From Tenacibaculum discolor (GTDB lineage: Bacteria; Bacteroidota; Bacteroidia; Flavobacteriales; Flavobacteriaceae): a DNA stretch of 64,000 nucleotides. The notes beneath the pieces were generated by a model that was not told the DNA's origin, ran no database searches, and was given only the letters and a program-made list of their open reading frames with translations. Positions 9,202 to 52,250 of the stretch are shown piece by piece. The translations under genes and the position numbers were made by a program. Where the stretch lies: assembly GCF_003664185.1 (NCBI RefSeq), contig NZ_RCCS01000010.1:186001-250000 (forward strand). The letters run 5' to 3'. Position 1 is the stretch's first letter; each line of letters opens with the position of its first letter.

Positions 9202-9867
9202 CTATTTTCTATGATCTGTGCTGATTGCAACTCCTAATTGAATTCTATTAAAGTTGCCAACCTCATTTAGATTTATCAGTTGATATCCTGCTTGAAGCTT
9301 AACTATGTCAGATACTTTGTATTTAAAACCAGCTCCAAACCAGTTTTGATTATAGGATTCACCCTTAAAATCTAAAAAAGTTTCATTATACAAATATGTA
9401 GACCATTTTTTATCGATAGGATGACTTAAAGCTAATTGATATCGGAAAAAATTACCAGTTGTTGATTCAAAAAAACGTTGTTCTCCTCTAAAACGATGTG
9501 CTAAATTTAAGCTAGCTATTTTATGCTTTACATTTAGGTCTTCATAAATTCGATGTTCGTTAAAATCGCCCGCGTCAATACCAAAAGTTCTATCTGTATT
9601 TAAGAAAGCATATCCTACGGTAGCGCTTAAAGTTTTGTTGAATTTATAATTACCACCTAAACGTCCAATGAATTGCTGTATATCGTCTCCAATTTCAAAA
9701 AAACGGAAATGCGCCATGCTTTTTAAACTAAACTTCTCAGAAATTTGATGAGATCCGTTGTACATATACCATACACCTAATTCTTTTGTTGGGTCTGGGG
9801 CTACTGATTGTTGAGCGAAATTGTTTAATGAAAATAAAGTGATAATTAATAAAGTTAACTTTTTCAT
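9202..9867 (-). CDS. DUF2490 outer-membrane beta-barrel protein
   Basis: A 221-residue protein with a clear Sec signal (MKKLTLLIITLFSLNNFAQQ), followed by alternating hydrophobic and polar residues and aromatic strand ends (ELGVWYMYNGSHQIS, NWFGAGFKYKVSD), ending in the strand RIQLGVAIST. This fits DUF2490, a predicted small outer-membrane barrel common in Bacteroidota. Function unknown. It lies 43 bases upstream of the DUF819 gene on the same strand and may be transcribed with it. A minus-strand terminator separates it from the upstream peptidase gene. Confidence 0.87.
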   Translation of the reverse strand: MKKLTLLIITLFSLNNFAQQSVAPDPTKELGVWYMYNGSHQISEKFSLKSMAHFRFFEIGDDIQQFIGRLGGNYKFNKTLSATVGYAFLNTDRTFGIDAGDFNEHRIYEDLNVKHKIASLNLAHRFRGEQRFFESTTGNFFRYQLALSHPIDKKWSTYLYNETFLDFKGESYNQNWFGAGFKYKVSDIVKLQAGYQLINLNEVGNFNRIQLGVAISTDHRK

Positions 9868-9896
9868 AATTGTTAAAGTGGTTGTTTGTTATATTA

Positions 9897-9931
9897 AAAA
9901 TCCCCTACATATGCGGTATATGTAGGAGATT
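9897..9931 (-). terminator. Rho-independent terminator behind the S9 peptidase gene
   Basis: Read on the minus strand, CTCCTACATAT / ATATGTAGGGG with a five-base loop followed by ATTTTTAA. Lies about 75 bases behind the S9 peptidase stop. Confidence 0.75.
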
Positions 9932-10007
9932 CAATTGTTATATGAGCAAAAATAAAAACCAGAGTTTTCTTAAGAAAAATTAGAATGTTAAAATTGCGCC
10001 AACTTGT

Positions 10008-11927
10008 TTATAATTCATCATTTTTAATAGGTTCCTCTTTTTTTAGATAAGTATCTAAAAATTGTAAAATTCTACTATTAGCTTCTATTTGATTTTCCTT
10101 TTTAACAAAACCATGTCCTTCATCATCAAAAAGAACATATTCTACAGGAACACCATTTTTCTTAACTCCAGCTACAATTTCGTCTGACTCTACTTGTAAA
10201 ACTCTTGGATCTTTAGCTCCTTGTAATACCATTAATGGTTTGGTTACTTTATCTGTATGAAATAAAGGAGAAATTCTTTTCAATCTTACCGAGTCTGCAG
10301 AGTGTGGATCACCTAACTCTTTGTATAAAGCTTCTCTAAAAGACTCCCACCAAGAAGGAATGCTTTTTAAGGTGCGCATCCAGTTCGTAACTCCGTAAAT
10401 GTTTACTCCAACAGCAAATTCTTCAGGAGCATATGTTAAAGCTGCCATTGTCATATAACCTCCGTAAGACCCTCCTATGATTCCTATTTTTTCAGCGTCT
10501 ATTTCTGGTTGTTTTGCTAACCAATTTTTACCCTCTACACAATCTTGCAAATCTTTTTCTCCGTGGTTTAAATCATCCATAGTAAAAAAGGTTTTACCAT
10601 ATCCGCTACTACCACGATTATTAACAGCCAAAACAGCATATCCGTGGTTTACTAAATATTGAATTCTTGAACTAAAGTTTTGACGTGATTGCCCTCCAGG
10701 ACCTCCGTGAACCCAAACCAAAGCAGGCACTTTAGTATCTTCTGAAGCTTGATGTGGCAAGTAGTAGATTGCAGGAATAGTTACTCCATCAAAAGAAGGG
10801 TAACGAATTACTTTCGCTTTTACTAAATCTTCGGGGTTAATTTCTTTATTTAATACATCAGTTAGTTGTGTTTGCTTTTTTGTTTTTAAGTCATACACAT
10901 ATAAGTTAGAAGGAGTGTTAGAGCCACCAGCATAAAAACGCATCATGCTTTCATCTCTAGAAAAACCAACACTAGTAATGCTTTTTCCGTTAACATTAGG
11001 TAGTTCTATGTTTTTACCAGCTTTAACATCATAAACTTCAATTACATTCTTAGCATCTTCATTAATATATGTTACTCTGTAGCTACCATTATTGGTAAAG
11101 TAACTTCCAGAAATATCCCAGTCTTTAGCTAATACTTTTTCTGTTTCGTTGGTATTAATAGTATATTTCATTAAGGTAGCAAATTCACCTTCCGCATCTG
11201 TTGTATAGTAAAACTCAGTATCATCAATAGAAAAATCAGCTGCTGAATTACCACTTAATCTTAGGTTAATTTTAGTGATTACTTTGGTGGTTCTGTCAAA
11301 CAAAAACAAATCACTATCGTTGGTGTTAACTGTTTTGCTTAGTGCTAACATATTTTTGTTGTTTGATATAGCCGAAACGTTATAACCTTCTTTGTTTTCA
11401 TAAATCATTTTAGGAGTAAAAGTTTCAAGATCCATTTCGTAGAGGTCCATAAAGCGATTGTCTCTTTTGTTTGAAGTAAAAAAGAAACTTTTTTCATCTT
11501 TAGCCCACCCAAAAAAGCTAGCTCTAGCTCCTTTGGTTGGTGTTAAATCTTTAATGTAACCATTAAGTTCTCTTAAAAAGATGTGGTAAATTTCATCACC
11601 ATTATTATCCATTCTAAACAGCATTCTTTCATCTTTTGGAAAATAAGAGGTTGCAAAAACTGAAGAGCTATCTGATTTTGTAATAGGCTCTAACTCACCA
11701 CCAGAAGTTGAAACAGTGTACATGTTATAAATTCCTGAACGATTACTAGTTACTAGTAATTTAGAGTTATCAGGAGAAAAACTTCCTCCAAAAACATTTT
11801 CGTTATCCATCATTTGCTCAATAGAGTATTTTTTGAGTGTTATGATGGCTTTGTCAGAATCTTTTTTATCCATTTTACAGGCAACTACCGAAAAGGCAAT
11901 GGCAAGTAGTAAGAAATGTTTTTTCAT
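10008..11927 (-). CDS. S9 family prolyl-oligopeptidase-type lipoprotein
   Basis: Predicted protein of 639 residues. Lipoprotein signal MKKHFLLLAIAFSVVACKM, then a WD40/beta-propeller region (about 35-370) with repeats such as GGSFSPDNSKLLVTSNRSG, then the alpha/beta hydrolase domain. The catalytic serine sits in GIIGGSYGGYMT (near 487), the aspartate in LQGAKDPRV and the histidine in DDEGHGF. The oxyanion segment VWVHGGPGG is intact. The S9C group cleaves short peptides or blocked N-termini and the propeller excludes large substrates. It is probably a periplasmic or surface peptidase. It lies directly downstream of the giant BNR-repeat gene on the same strand. Confidence 0.93.
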   Translation of the reverse strand: MKKHFLLLAIAFSVVACKMDKKDSDKAIITLKKYSIEQMMDNENVFGGSFSPDNSKLLVTSNRSGIYNMYTVSTSGGELEPITKSDSSSVFATSYFPKDERMLFRMDNNGDEIYHIFLRELNGYIKDLTPTKGARASFFGWAKDEKSFFFTSNKRDNRFMDLYEMDLETFTPKMIYENKEGYNVSAISNNKNMLALSKTVNTNDSDLFLFDRTTKVITKINLRLSGNSAADFSIDDTEFYYTTDAEGEFATLMKYTINTNETEKVLAKDWDISGSYFTNNGSYRVTYINEDAKNVIEVYDVKAGKNIELPNVNGKSITSVGFSRDESMMRFYAGGSNTPSNLYVYDLKTKKQTQLTDVLNKEINPEDLVKAKVIRYPSFDGVTIPAIYYLPHQASEDTKVPALVWVHGGPGGQSRQNFSSRIQYLVNHGYAVLAVNNRGSSGYGKTFFTMDDLNHGEKDLQDCVEGKNWLAKQPEIDAEKIGIIGGSYGGYMTMAALTYAPEEFAVGVNIYGVTNWMRTLKSIPSWWESFREALYKELGDPHSADSVRLKRISPLFHTDKVTKPLMVLQGAKDPRVLQVESDEIVAGVKKNGVPVEYVLFDDEGHGFVKKENQIEANSRILQFLDTYLKKEEPIKNDEL

Positions 11928-45647: not shown

Positions 45648-45855
45648 TTAGTATTAATTAGAGCTAACAAAAAAACTAGTGGTTTTAAAGAGTTAATAAA
45701 ACTTGTTTTCTGTTTTAAAATCTAAATAAGTATTGGTTTATAGGTGTTTATGTTGTTTTTTGCGTATTTTAGGATAATTTTTTCGCGGAGAATTGGCATA
45801 CGCTGTGAGTGCCATTAAATGTTCACAGTTTCAAATAACTGTTAAAAGTTTTAGT

Positions 45856-46035
45856 ATGAAAAATTTATTAAACTTAGGAAAAGTTCTAAACAAGTTTGAA
45901 CAAAAACAAATTAAAGGAAGCAATGGTAATGAATGCTATGAATGTCTACCTGATGCTCCTCCAGGAAGTGGTTTTGCATGTGCAGGGTCTGATGTATGTC
46001 AATTTATGCCTGATGGGTGTCATATATGTGTGTAA
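45856..46035 (+). CDS. Small Cys-rich peptide with Bacteroidota GG-type leader (RiPP precursor-like)
   Basis: A 59-residue peptide beginning MKNLLNLGKVLNKFEQKQIK. The leader pattern (NLGKxLNKxEQKxI followed by G) is that of the GG natural product precursors of Bacteroidota; the usual GG is GS here (residues 21-22). The core has six Cys (27, 30, 42, 48, 55, 58), two Pro-rich turns and no clear dehydration sites. The upstream part of the frame is not needed. A UUCG-loop terminator follows. It is likely exported by a C39-peptidase transporter; none is near. Alternative: a small secreted peptide not modified. Confidence 0.8.
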   Translation: MKNLLNLGKVLNKFEQKQIKGSNGNECYECLPDAPPGSGFACAGSDVCQFMPDGCHICV

Positions 46036-46194: not shown

Positions 46195-46353
46195 TTAGTT
46201 ACCTGGTTCAGGTATACAGTTACAATTTTCATCAAAGCCATAGCCTTCTTGACAAGGTCTAGTGAAAACTCCACAGTTTTCATTTCCTCCATTAACTGAT
46301 TTTTGTTCTTGTTTATTTAAAACAGCACCTAAGTTTGAAATGTTCTTTAACAT
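46195..46353 (-). CDS. Second small Cys-rich GG-leader peptide (RiPP precursor-like)
   Basis: A 52-residue peptide beginning MLKNISNLGAVLNKQEQKSV and then NGG at 21-23, a full double-glycine leader of the Bacteroidota natural-product type. The core of 29 residues has four Cys (27, 34, 44, 46) and ends NCNCIPEPGN. It is a paralogue of the peptide at 45856-46035, to which its leader is closely similar, and faces it. The ATG eight codons upstream is less likely to be used, as the leader starts with MLKN as in relatives. Confidence 0.82.
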   Translation of the reverse strand: MLKNISNLGAVLNKQEQKSVNGGNENCGVFTRPCQEGYGFDENCNCIPEPGN

Positions 46354-46506
46354 AATTTGAGTTTTAAAATTTATCAAACATATAAATAAAACATAATTAA
46401 GAAACGAAATAAACCGTAATAAAAGTAAGGTAATTCCTTACTTAACTAAATTTAACAAATAACTAGAGTTGAAGAAGCAATCATAGGATTTGGAGAAACA
46501 GAAAAG

Positions 46507-47695: not shown

Positions 47696-47899
47696 ATGTT
47701 AAAAAAGAAATTATCTCTCAATAAAGAGAAAATTGCGAGTCTAAATGATTTTGAAATGAACCAAATTAGAGGAGGTGTAGAAGCTGATAAATCAAGCCCA
47801 AGTACAAAACGAGGTTTTACTTGTTGTTGGTGTATTAAAATCGGAGGTTCGGGAACCTCAAGAGTTGAAACAGTTAATCCTACAGTGATAAATAATTAA
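47696..47899 (+). CDS. Class I lanthipeptide precursor (LanA)
   Basis: A 67-residue peptide with leader MLKKKLSLNKEKIASLNDFE and then MNQIRGG at 21-27; the pattern LSLNKEKIxxLNDxEMNxIxGG is typical of class I lanthipeptide precursors of Bacteroidota. The core of 40 residues contains five Ser, five Thr and three Cys in CCWC (43-46 region), enough for up to three lanthionine rings. LanC and both parts of LanB follow. GG suggests cleavage by a C39-type transporter. Probable secreted antimicrobial or signal peptide; product not known. Confidence 0.88.
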   Translation: MLKKKLSLNKEKIASLNDFEMNQIRGGVEADKSSPSTKRGFTCCWCIKIGGSGTSRVETVNPTVINN

Positions 47900-47922
47900 G
47901 CTCAGTTCAATTTTTATTATTT

Positions 47923-47950
47923 AAGCCTAATTAACTTTAGGCTTTTTTTA
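47923..47950 (+). terminator. Attenuator-type hairpin between precursor and LanC genes
   Basis: AAGCCTAA / TTAGGCTT with a six-base loop then TTTTTTA, five bases ahead of the lanC ATG. It would let most transcripts end behind the precursor gene, so more peptide than enzyme is made. Confidence 0.82.
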
Positions 47951-47954
47951 TACA

Positions 47955-49133
47955 ATGAAAAGAAAACAAGTTTTAAAAACTATTACATTAATAGAGCAAC
48001 AATTATATTGTTCTTGGAAGAATGTAGACAATATATCTCTCTATCAAGGAATTTCCGGTATAGCTCTTTTTTATTATAATTTATATAGATTAACAAAAGA
48101 AGAAAAGTACCTAAATGTATTAAATAAAATTATAGAAACTCTTTTTGAAAAGCTTAATAATTCTACGTATAATTATTCATATTGTGAAGGTTTATCAGGT
48201 ATAGCTCACTTGATTTATTTTTTGAAACAAAAAAAAATTATAGATGAAGACGTAGAAGATACATTAAAAGAAATTGATAGTATTTTATATGATTGGGCTA
48301 TAAATTATACTTCTGATATAGAAAGTATAGATTTTTTACACGGAAGTTTAGGGGCTCTTCATTACTTAATAGATAGAAAATATACTAAAGCCAAAACTCT
48401 CCTTTATAAAATTAAAGAAGTAATTGAAAAAGATATAGAGGAAGGGAAAACTTCATTTGAAACCAATGTAGTTAATTGCGGATTAGCACATGGTAATATT
48501 TCATATTTATTAATTTTTTCAAACTATTTAGAGAAATATCCTAAAGATACTATAATTGAAAATTTCATATTTAAGGTAATTAATTTACAATTAAAATATA
48601 AGTCAAGAAACTCAAACAGCTTATCTGTTTTTCCCTCTATTGTTTATGCTAATACAAATGAACCTAATAATTATGATATCCCTATGGGGTGGTGCTATGG
48701 GGATCAGACAGCTGTTTTTGGTTTAAACAAAGCTGCTAAAATAATAGATGATGACGAGGTTTTATCTCTTACAAAAGAAATTGCATATCATTGTTGTAAA
48801 AGAGACACGATAATAAAGTCTTTTTTTTCTGAAGAATCTGATGCTTGTTTTTGTCATGGTACTTCTAGTGCTGCTTATTTATTCAAAAAAATGTACAAAA
48901 CATATAATGAAGATGTATTTAATGATAGGTATGAACTTTTTATAAATTATACTTTAGATAGGAGGAAATTTTCAGATGTGATTTCTGGCTATAAAAAATA
49001 CAGTAATATAACAGGAGAAAATGAAGTTTCTAATAGTTTATTAGATGGTATTTCTGGGATTGGGATAGTATTAATAGATTACTTATTAGGAAATGAAAAT
49101 GACGATTGGGATAAATTTTTTCTACTTAATTAA
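47955..49133 (+). CDS. LanC-type lanthionine cyclase
   Basis: Predicted protein of 392 residues. LanC proteins hold zinc by two Cys and a His; here GWCYGD gives Cys247 and DACFCHG gives Cys300 and His301. SLYQGISGIALFYYNLYRLT, YCEGLSGIAHLIYFL, LHGSLGALHYLI, GLAHGNISYLLIFSN and LLDGISGIGIVLIDYL are the repeated glycine-containing segments of the alpha/alpha toroid. It adds Cys thiols to dehydro-amino acids to make lanthionine rings. Follows the precursor gene after the attenuator; ten bases ahead of the LanB gene. Confidence 0.94.
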   Translation: MKRKQVLKTITLIEQQLYCSWKNVDNISLYQGISGIALFYYNLYRLTKEEKYLNVLNKIIETLFEKLNNSTYNYSYCEGLSGIAHLIYFLKQKKIIDEDVEDTLKEIDSILYDWAINYTSDIESIDFLHGSLGALHYLIDRKYTKAKTLLYKIKEVIEKDIEEGKTSFETNVVNCGLAHGNISYLLIFSNYLEKYPKDTIIENFIFKVINLQLKYKSRNSNSLSVFPSIVYANTNEPNNYDIPMGWCYGDQTAVFGLNKAAKIIDDDEVLSLTKEIAYHCCKRDTIIKSFFSEESDACFCHGTSSAAYLFKKMYKTYNEDVFNDRYELFINYTLDRRKFSDVISGYKKYSNITGENEVSNSLLDGISGIGIVLIDYLLGNENDDWDKFFLLN

Positions 49134-49143
49134 TTAATTGCTT

Positions 49144-51369
49144 ATGAATAAAACACCTTACAAAGAATTTAATGAGGTTATTATTAGAACGCCTTTATTT
49201 TCCTTTGATTTTTATAGAAAACTATTTTTTAATGAAGAAGTAAATGATTCTGAAATTAAGAAGGCTTTAGAAGATAAGGCTCTAAAAGAGGCTTTGTTTT
49301 TAGCATCACCGGAATTATATAATGAAGTTTTTAAATGGATTAATGGAAAGATTGAAGACGATAAAAAAATTGAAAGGTTAAAAATTACTATAATTAAATA
49401 TTTCAGTAGAATTTCATCAAGAAGTACACCTTTCGGTTTATTTGCAGGTTGTGGTATAGGCTATTTAAGCCAAAAAGAAACTGAATTAACCCCTAAAAAC
49501 ATAAATAAACATAAAAGGCATACAAGGCTGGATATGAATTATTTAATATCGCTTTCTCAAGATATTTCAAAGAAAGAAGAAATAAGGGAGCAATTACTTT
49601 TTTATCCTAATTCGAGTATATATAAAATAGGGGATAAATACAGGTATATTGAATATAGTTATTTCAATACAAAACGAATACATCATATTGTAGCAATTGA
49701 TAAAAATGAAATTATTGATGCTATTTTAAATAGAGCGCAAAAAGGAGCTACTATTCATGATTTAGCAAATGAAATAGTAAATGAAGAAATAGAATATGAA
49801 GATGCTTTTGATTTTATCTTAGAAATTGTTTCAAGTCAAATCTTAATAAGTGAATTAGAGCCATCTATTTTAGGAAGTGATTTTTTAAATCACATTATAA
49901 AAATTCTTGAGAAACTAAAAAACACAGATGTATTGTTAACGTACTTAATAGATATACGAAAACTACTTAATGTGTTGGATAATAAAATTGGTAATGAAAT
50001 ATCTACGTATAAAAAAATAATTTCTGTTTTAAAAGATATAGGAACTGAATTTAATCCTAAATATGTTTTTCAAACTGATCTGAATTTAGAATTTGAAAAG
50101 AATAATATCTCGAAAGATTTAATTGTTCCTTTAAAAAAGGCTATGGCTATATTGAATAGTTCAACCTTAAAACAAGCAAACCCAGTTTTAAAGAAGTTTT
50201 GTGAAAAATTATATCAAAGATATGAAGAGAGGCCTGTAAGTTTAGCTTTGGCTTTAGATATAGAAAGTGGTATAGGCTATAATCAAAATAATTTAAGTGC
50301 AGATATTAATCCTTTAGTAGATGACTTAAGCTTAAATCCAGGAAGAGAATCTTTTATGGAAATTAAGTGGAGTACATTGAATGATATGTTACAAGAAAAG
50401 TTAACAAATTCGAATGTAAAAAATAGTAACTTAATAAAAGTAAGGGATGATGACTTTGTTGGTTTTAATAATGACTGGGACGATCTTCCTGATACATTAT
50501 ATGGAATTGTAAATATTGTAAATATAAATGGAGAAATTAAAATTGTATTAGATGGGTATTACGGGAGTAGTGCAGGAAATTTAATAGGTAGATTTTGTAA
50601 TGGAAATAAAGATTTTGAAGATTTTGTTAATAGAATATGTGAAGTTGAAAAAAAAATAAATCAAGATAAAGTGTTAGCAGAAATAGCCCATTTACCAGAA
50701 TCTAGAATTGGAAATATTTTAATGCGCCCATCTTTTAGAGAATATGAAATTCCATATTTAAGTAATTCCACCAAGAGTAATGATAAGAAAATTAATATAA
50801 ATGATTTAAAAATATCTGCATCATATGAGGGAAAAATTAAATTAACTTCTAAATTATTAAAAAAAGAAATAAAACCCTGTTTAACCAATGCTCATAATTT
50901 TTCTTATAACTCCCTTCCTGTTTATAATTTATTATGTGATATCCAAAATCAAGGAAGGAATCATCTGAGTATTGGGTTTGGGCCCCTAGCAAATACTTTT
51001 AATTATTTACCAAGATTGGAATATGAAAATGTTATTTTATCTAAAGCTACTTGGAATATAAAAAAGGAAAAAATAAACCATCTTTTTTTATTAAAAGAAA
51101 AGTTTAGTCTAATGAAAGCTATTAATGAATGGAGGGAAGAAATGAAAATACCTAAACTTGCAACATTGATAGAAGGAGATAATTACATATTAATCAATTT
51201 TGAAAACATTGATTTTGTAAATGTTTTTTTATCAATTATTCGAAATCAAGAGTTTTTTATACTAACAGAATTTTTATTTGGAGAAAATGATGTTATTAAT
51301 AATAGAGAGGGTGGTTATGTTAATGAGTTTATTTTTTCTTTTTTCAATGAATCTAAATTAAAGAATTAA
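49144..51369 (+). CDS. LanB lantibiotic dehydratase, glutamylation part
   Basis: About 741 residues from the ATG at 49144 (a TTG two codons earlier is open). SRISSRSTPFGLFAGCGIG near residue 100 is the hallmark of LanB N-domains, with HKRHTRLDMNYLISLSQ next and PVSLALALDIESGIGYNQNN in the middle. It transfers Glu from glutamyl-tRNA to Ser or Thr of the precursor. The SpaB C-terminal elimination domain is missing and is encoded by the next gene, so the dehydratase is split. The start of the next gene comes two bases after the stop. Confidence 0.93.
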   Translation: MNKTPYKEFNEVIIRTPLFSFDFYRKLFFNEEVNDSEIKKALEDKALKEALFLASPELYNEVFKWINGKIEDDKKIERLKITIIKYFSRISSRSTPFGLFAGCGIGYLSQKETELTPKNINKHKRHTRLDMNYLISLSQDISKKEEIREQLLFYPNSSIYKIGDKYRYIEYSYFNTKRIHHIVAIDKNEIIDAILNRAQKGATIHDLANEIVNEEIEYEDAFDFILEIVSSQILISELEPSILGSDFLNHIIKILEKLKNTDVLLTYLIDIRKLLNVLDNKIGNEISTYKKIISVLKDIGTEFNPKYVFQTDLNLEFEKNNISKDLIVPLKKAMAILNSSTLKQANPVLKKFCEKLYQRYEERPVSLALALDIESGIGYNQNNLSADINPLVDDLSLNPGRESFMEIKWSTLNDMLQEKLTNSNVKNSNLIKVRDDDFVGFNNDWDDLPDTLYGIVNIVNINGEIKIVLDGYYGSSAGNLIGRFCNGNKDFEDFVNRICEVEKKINQDKVLAEIAHLPESRIGNILMRPSFREYEIPYLSNSTKSNDKKININDLKISASYEGKIKLTSKLLKKEIKPCLTNAHNFSYNSLPVYNLLCDIQNQGRNHLSIGFGPLANTFNYLPRLEYENVILSKATWNIKKEKINHLFLLKEKFSLMKAINEWREEMKIPKLATLIEGDNYILINFENIDFVNVFLSIIRNQEFFILTEFLFGENDVINNREGGYVNEFIFSFFNESKLKN

Positions 51370-51371
51370 AA

Positions 51372-52250
51372 ATGAAAAGAAGCTTTATAATTGGCGACGA
51401 GTGGGTATATTTTAAGATATATACAGGGGCTCGAACTGCTGATAATATTCTTACTGAAGTAATTGACCCAATTAAAACAAAGTTGCTGAATAAAAAAATC
51501 ATCACTAAATGGTTTTTTATAAGGTATAATGATTCTAATAATCATTTGAGAGTTAGGTTTCATTATTCAAACCCTGAAAATATTTCTGTTATAATTAATT
51601 CTTTGTTTACCCCATTAAAAAATTATTTTGATAACGATTTAATATGGAATGTACAAATTGATACATATAATAGAGAGTTAGAAAGATATGGTATAAATAC
51701 AATGGAGTTATCTGAAAAATTATTTTTTTATGAAAGCGAATTAATTTTAAACTTCTTAAATAAAAATATAAGTGCTAATAAAGAGGAGGTTAGATGGTTA
51801 TTTGGTATTAAAATCATAGATATAATATTGGATAACTTTCTTTTCACAAAAGAAGAAAAGAAAAGCTACATAGACTCATTGGCTAATTTGTTTCAGGGTG
51901 AGTTTAATTTTAATAAAGCATCTAGAAAACAACTTAACCAAAAATATAGAGAAAAACGTAAAACCATTGAGAATATTATGAATTCTGATGAGTTTTATTT
52001 AATCCAATCTACAGAGCTTGAAAATTCGATATCAAAGTTTCAAAAAGAAAGTAAAAAGATATGTGATCAGATTTTACAACTAAATAATGAAAACAAGCTG
52101 GATGTTGAAATTGGTAGTTTAATTTCAAGTTATTTGCATATGTTTTTAAACAGGCTTTTTAAATCAAAAAACAGACTAAATGAGATGGTTTGCTATTCTT
52201 TTTTAGCAAAATATTATTTGTTTTTAATAGCTAGAATAAATAATGATTAA
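51372..52250 (+). CDS. LanB elimination part (SpaB_C, thiopeptide-type dehydratase)
   Basis: Predicted protein of 292 residues with WVYFKIYTGARTADNILTEV, WFFIRYNDSNNHLRVRFHYS, QIDTYNRELERYGINTMELSE, and the C-terminal SYLHMFLNRLFKSKNRLNEM. This is the SpaB_C domain that in LanB eliminates glutamate to give dehydroalanine or dehydrobutyrine. It is encoded alone, right behind the glutamylation part with a two-base gap, so the two chains should form one enzyme. Last gene of the operon. Confidence 0.93.
   Translation: MKRSFIIGDEWVYFKIYTGARTADNILTEVIDPIKTKLLNKKIITKWFFIRYNDSNNHLRVRFHYSNPENISVIINSLFTPLKNYFDNDLIWNVQIDTYNRELERYGINTMELSEKLFFYESELILNFLNKNISANKEEVRWLFGIKIIDIILDNFLFTKEEKKSYIDSLANLFQGEFNFNKASRKQLNQKYREKRKTIENIMNSDEFYLIQSTELENSISKFQKESKKICDQILQLNNENKLDVEIGSLISSYLHMFLNRLFKSKNRLNEMVCYSFLAKYYLFLIARINND

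What the first reader, a model, noticed from the sequence alone, without database searches (positions are those of the whole stretch)
47696..52250. Compact class I lanthipeptide locus with a split LanB and no transporter, protease or immunity gene
Seen: precursor with GG leader, LanC with its Cys/Cys/His zinc set, a 741-residue dehydratase with the SRSTPFGLFAG motif but no SpaB_C domain, and a separate 292-residue SpaB_C protein two bases later. Known: LanB enzymes usually hold glutamylation and elimination in one chain; split forms are known for thiopeptides, and I recall one for the pinensin lantibiotics of Bacteroidota. Inferred: the enzyme is a two-chain dehydratase, and export and cleavage are done from elsewhere in the genome. 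The product would be new or poorly described.
Basis: partly seen in the sequence, partly recalled or inferred. Interest (0 to 1): 0.75.

Follow-up and report, generated by a model that had tools for sequence, protein, structure and literature searches.

The report
Pinensin-like split-dehydratase lanthipeptide operon
A Flavobacterium genome carries a real, intact four-gene set for a thioether-ringed peptide whose dehydrating enzyme comes as two proteins; this two-protein form turns out to be the usual one in the family, so the locus is a new member of a known kind, although its peptide core is shared by three other genomes and appears uncharacterised.

Summary
In detail: lanA (67 aa), lanC, a LanB glutamylation protein (741 aa) and a separate SpaB_C elimination protein (292 aa) are intact at the stated coordinates. 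The genome has no second LanC, LanB or SpaB_C, so there is no hidden full-length LanB. The split is not a frameshift: 30 other adjacent LanB-N/SpaB_C pairs break at the same place, and in Flavobacteriaceae they form one supported lineage. It is therefore the common local form, already described for pinensin (pinB1/pinB2) and in genome surveys. Catalytic residues are conserved in all three enzymes. Lacking a transporter in cis is also ordinary: 11 of 22 comparable loci lack one nearby. The genome has two C39 exporters elsewhere. One, 85 kb away on the same contig, is 84% identical and sister to the exporter inside a relative's split-LanB cluster, and groups with exporters of clusters making the most similar precursors; it is the best candidate to cleave and export this peptide. 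The precursor's core, S(S/T)xxxFTCxWC, recurs in three other genomes, one of which uses a fused LanB with an almost identical core. That core family looks uncharacterised, but I could not obtain the pinensin core to compare. Verdict: new member of a known kind.

The parts
47696..47899 (+). lanA: class I lanthipeptide precursor, 67 aa; leader to ...NQIRGG (residue 27), core VEADKSSPSTKRGFTCCWCIKIGGSGTSRVETVNPTVINN
   Evidence: ORF; NCBIfam NF038153 43.6 bits; core motif shared with L061, L062, L063 precursors
47923..47944 (+). 8-pair hairpin followed by a T tract between lanA and lanC; probable partial terminator giving more precursor than enzyme
   Evidence: terminator-like match; fold z = -1.9; hairpins by eye at the same position in L062 and L061
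47955..49133 (+). lanC: cyclase, zinc ligands C247, C300, H301, also D126 and H179
   Evidence: PF05147 160 bits; residues conserved in at least 93% of 44 relatives
49144..51369 (+). lanB-N: glutamylation half of the dehydratase, 741 aa
   Evidence: PF04738 415 bits; aligns to NisB 34-708
51372..52250 (+). spaB_C: stand-alone glutamate-elimination half, 292 aa
   Evidence: PF14028 237 bits, TIGR03891 222 bits; R60, R62, E102, R105, H256 invariant in 31 relatives

Best explanation
This is a class I lanthipeptide operon of the pinensin type (split LanB, Bacteroidota LxLxK...GG leader). The 741-aa protein transfers glutamate from glutamyl-tRNA to Ser/Thr of the precursor core; the 292-aa SpaB_C protein removes glutamate to give Dha/Dhb; zinc-dependent LanC adds the core cysteines (FTCCWC) to dehydro-residues to make thioether rings. 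The hairpin after lanA probably sets a high precursor-to-enzyme ratio. The modified peptide is then most likely cleaved after Gly-Gly and exported by an unlinked C39 exporter, best candidate C7:146453-148645 with its HlyD partner. Shown: genes, domains, residues, conserved split, sole copies in the genome, orthology of that exporter to in-cluster exporters. Inferred: catalysis, ring pattern, export in trans, biological activity.
For: Domain and leader matches. Single LanC, LanB-N and SpaB_C in the genome. Split pairs in 21 other LanC-containing loci and 9-10 LanC-less loci, adjacent or overlapping; the 30 Flavobacteriaceae split rows (21 with LanC, 9 without) form one side of a branch with 98/96 support. 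NisB R83, R87, D299 and R464 positions are matched in the alignment (that these are functional residues is from my own knowledge). SpaB_C R/E/H set invariant. The leader has hydrophobic residues at -4, -7, -12, -15 before GG, as C39 substrates do (sequence; rule from general knowledge). Own C39 exporter is 84% identical and sister (99/100) to the exporter inside split-LanB cluster L070, and in a 93/95 clade with those of L061 and L062, whose precursors share the core.
Against: No biochemical or mass data. C39 proteins are common (8 of 14 control genomes), so having one is not specific; that exporter already sits beside its own array of GG peptides with a different leader, and a second exporter (C10) exists. 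Export by either transporter, or none, stays possible.
Confidence: 0.88

Rival explanations
1. The SpaB_C protein is not the eliminase but a second type of enzyme, such as the [4+2] cycloaddition enzyme of thiopeptides and pyritides, so the product is not a simple lanthipeptide.
For: It matches TIGR03891 (thiopeptide-type), and stand-alone SpaB_C proteins include such enzymes (PMC7268733).
Against: It is the only SpaB_C domain in the genome, so elimination would have no enzyme; it keeps R60, R62, E102, R105 and H256; a LanC with intact zinc ligands follows the precursor; the core is Cys-rich.
Confidence: 0.05
2. A frameshift or sequencing error has split one LanB gene.
For: Only two bases separate the genes.
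Against: The same boundary occurs in 30 other loci from different genomes with protein lengths 720-762 and 280-337.
Confidence: 0.01
3. The cluster is a decaying remnant: export genes were lost and the product stays in the cell or is not made.
For: Low local G+C (24-27% against mostly 29-36% nearby), and no transporter or regulator recognised in cis.
Against: All four genes are intact with conserved residues; half of comparable loci lack a transporter within about 8-9 kb, and all six such genomes tested have a full-length C39 exporter elsewhere.
Confidence: 0.1

Closest known systems
Pinensin cluster of Chitinophaga pinensis (BGC0001392)
   Same: Class I, split dehydratase genes pinB1/pinB2, LanC, Bacteroidota (PMC10112250). 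The window LanC scores best against LanM-type models, as Walker et al. report for pinensin-associated LanCs.
   Different: Pinensin has pinT and further export and uptake genes in the cluster; the window has none recognised. Core sequences could not be compared.
Bacteroidota class I lanthipeptides with LxLxKx5L...GG leaders (Walker et al. 2020, PMC7268733; NCBIfam NF038153)
   Same: Leader model, LanC, split LanB form described there.
   Different: That survey notes that a C39 protease is often in the cluster; here it is unlinked.
G613 locus (L062)
   Same: Precursor 69% identical with the same FTCCWCIKIGGSG core; LanC 36% identical; its C39 exporter is 69% identical to the own C7 exporter.
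   Different: LanB is one 1005-aa protein of another lineage, and the exporter is in the cluster.
Thiopeptide split LanB pairs
   Same: Glutamylation and elimination on two chains.
   Different: Here with LanC and without a [4+2] enzyme in the genome.

Membership tests
Class I lanthipeptide cluster | LanB dehydratase (glutamylation and elimination) plus separate LanC | tested here: met
   PF04738, PF14028, PF05147 all far above cut-off
Class I lanthipeptide cluster | LanC zinc ligands Cys, Cys-His | tested here: met
   C247, C300, H301
Class I lanthipeptide cluster | Precursor with recognised leader and Ser/Thr plus Cys in the core | tested here: met
   NF038153 43.6 bits, cut-off 22; three Cys in the core
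Class I lanthipeptide cluster | Lanthionine or methyllanthionine in the product | not testable with these tools
   Needs mass spectrometry
Pinensin family | Split LanB with LanC in Bacteroidota | tested here: met
   PMC10112250
Pinensin family | Pinensin-like core peptide | not tested
Pinensin family | pinT and export/uptake genes in the cluster | tested here: not met
   No C39 protein in the window and no relative of the own C39 exporter at 30-64 kb; other pin accessory genes not searched
Thiopeptide cluster | Separate [4+2] cycloaddition enzyme besides the eliminase | tested here: not met
   Only one PF14028 domain in the genome

The most novel reading that the evidence does not exclude
The FTCxWC peptides form a distinct lanthipeptide family whose nearly identical cores are dehydrated by either a fused or a two-chain LanB, and which in this genome is exported by a shared C39 exporter that serves several unlinked peptide loci.
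Probability: 0.35. Interest if true: 0.5.

Novelty: new member of a known kind. Interest (0 to 1): 0.33.

Why it matters
Almost no Bacteroidota lanthipeptides have been characterised although their clusters are common. The pair formed by this locus and L062 gives nearly the same core peptide with two-chain and one-chain dehydratases, which is a natural test of what the split changes. The unlinked exporter, if confirmed, explains why compact clusters without transporters persist.

Tried and rejected
Frameshift: rejected by 30 conserved split pairs. Hidden full-length LanB: none. [4+2] enzyme: only one SpaB_C. Promoter scan gave no more sites than shuffles. No structure prediction was run because domain and residue evidence was already decisive.

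Full report
Check of the observation. The domain calls are beyond doubt: LanC PF05147 160 bits, LanB-N PF04738 415 bits over 645 residues, SpaB_C PF14028 237 bits. The leader matches NCBIfam lant_leader_L1a, annotated 'class I lanthipeptide', at 43.6 bits against a cut-off of 22. The LanB start is best taken at ATG 49144 (741 aa).

Whole genome. The window lies in a 3.38 Mb, 12-contig genome (completeness 99.97%). It holds one LanC, one SpaB_C and one LanB-N, all in this locus. Three C39 proteins exist. C7:146453-148645 is a 730-aa C39-ABC exporter with a HlyD partner; C7:150325-151923 is a C39-VKOR-thioredoxin protein; C10 near 41 kb is a second C39-ABC exporter beside a radical SAM protein. 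The first lies beside an array of short GG-leader Cys-rich peptides, 85 kb from lanA.

Is the split real and is it rare? I took neighbourhoods of LanC and SpaB_C matches from Flavobacterium, Flavobacteriaceae and other Bacteroidota. Twenty-two LanC loci, including the window and Flavobacterium jejuense (L007), have a LanB-N of 720-762 aa next to a SpaB_C of about 290-340 aa, and 9-10 further loci have the pair without LanC. The gap between the two genes is between -101 and +5 bases everywhere (ORF-defined starts). In a maximum-likelihood tree of LanB-N, the 30 Flavobacteriaceae split rows (21 with LanC, 9 without) sit on one side of a branch supported 98/96; one distant split row (L083, long branch) falls elsewhere. 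The split form is therefore an old and common lineage, not a curiosity or an error. It is also published: pinensin has pinB1/pinB2 (PMC10112250), and Walker et al. 2020 report split LanB enzymes, and LxLxKx5L leaders with GG sites in Bacteroidota (PMC7268733).

Do the parts look active? LanC keeps C247, C300, H301, D126 and H179; SpaB_C keeps R60, R62, E102, R105 and H256 in all relatives; LanB-N keeps R15, R89, R93 and R483. The LanB-N alignment to NisB puts matching residues opposite NisB R83, R87, D299 and R464, which I recall as glutamylation residues; that functional assignment is from memory. The two-step division of labour follows from established LanB biochemistry and was not tested.

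Precursor. The window LanA and those of L062, L061 and L063 align with an invariant FTCxWC and a preceding Ser-(Ser/Thr). The L062 peptide is 69% identical, including FTCCWCIKIGGSG. Yet L062 carries a fused 1005-aa LanB of another lineage. A scan of 395 genomes of the class found close relatives of this core only in genomes already known to have it; other matches share only the leader.

Expression. An 8-pair hairpin with a T tract lies between lanA and lanC (47923-47944; fold z -1.9). L062 and L061 have unrelated hairpin sequences at the same place, by eye, which suggests a kept function such as limiting read-through.

Export. Of the 22 split+LanC loci, 11 have a C39 exporter in the fetched neighbourhood (one cut by the edge) and 11, including the window, do not; neighbourhoods reach about 8-9 kb, so some exporters may lie just outside. 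All six transporter-less genomes tested have C39-ABC exporters elsewhere. The own C7 exporter is 84% identical to the one in cluster L070 (sister, 99/100) and 68-69% identical to those in L061 and L062 (clade 93/95), whose precursors carry the same core; the own C10 exporter is only 50% identical. This makes the C7 exporter the best candidate for leader cleavage and export in trans. It is inference.

Verdict. New member of a known kind, moderate to low interest, with a useful natural comparison (same core, fused or split LanB).

Noticed in passing
L028-L032, L034-L037, L039 (Flavobacterium genomes): Split LanB-N + SpaB_C operons without LanC, with a TPR/HTH_18 regulator (Pfam in L028, L034), an S9 prolyl oligopeptidase (Pfam in L028, L029) or a protein that looks like an S8 protease (L037, by eye), and short GG-leader peptides whose cores are Cys-poor and often Asp/Ser/Thr-rich. 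They form their own clade (100/97); most of these genomes gave no LanC match to the window query (G034 does, G080 marginally). Possibly a dehydrated, non-lanthionine peptide class.
   Followed up: partly
L062 (G613) 9411-10913: Nearly identical precursor core to the window but with a fused LanB of another lineage: precursor and dehydratase seem to have been exchanged.
   Followed up: partly
window 45793-46035 (+) and 46195-46377 (-): Two Cys-rich small ORFs with an LGxxLNKxEQKxxxG-type leader like the peptide array beside the C39 exporter 85 kb away; the first has G-S-N-G instead of GG.
   Followed up: partly
L008, L038, L096-L100: Another lanthipeptide type in the genus: fused LanB (~1030 aa), one or two LanC-like proteins, a ~315-aa protein and a C39 exporter, often with several near-identical precursors.
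   Followed up: no
L027 5953-10520 (C10): Radical SAM protein beside a C39-ABC exporter in the same genome, probably a second RiPP cluster.
   Followed up: no
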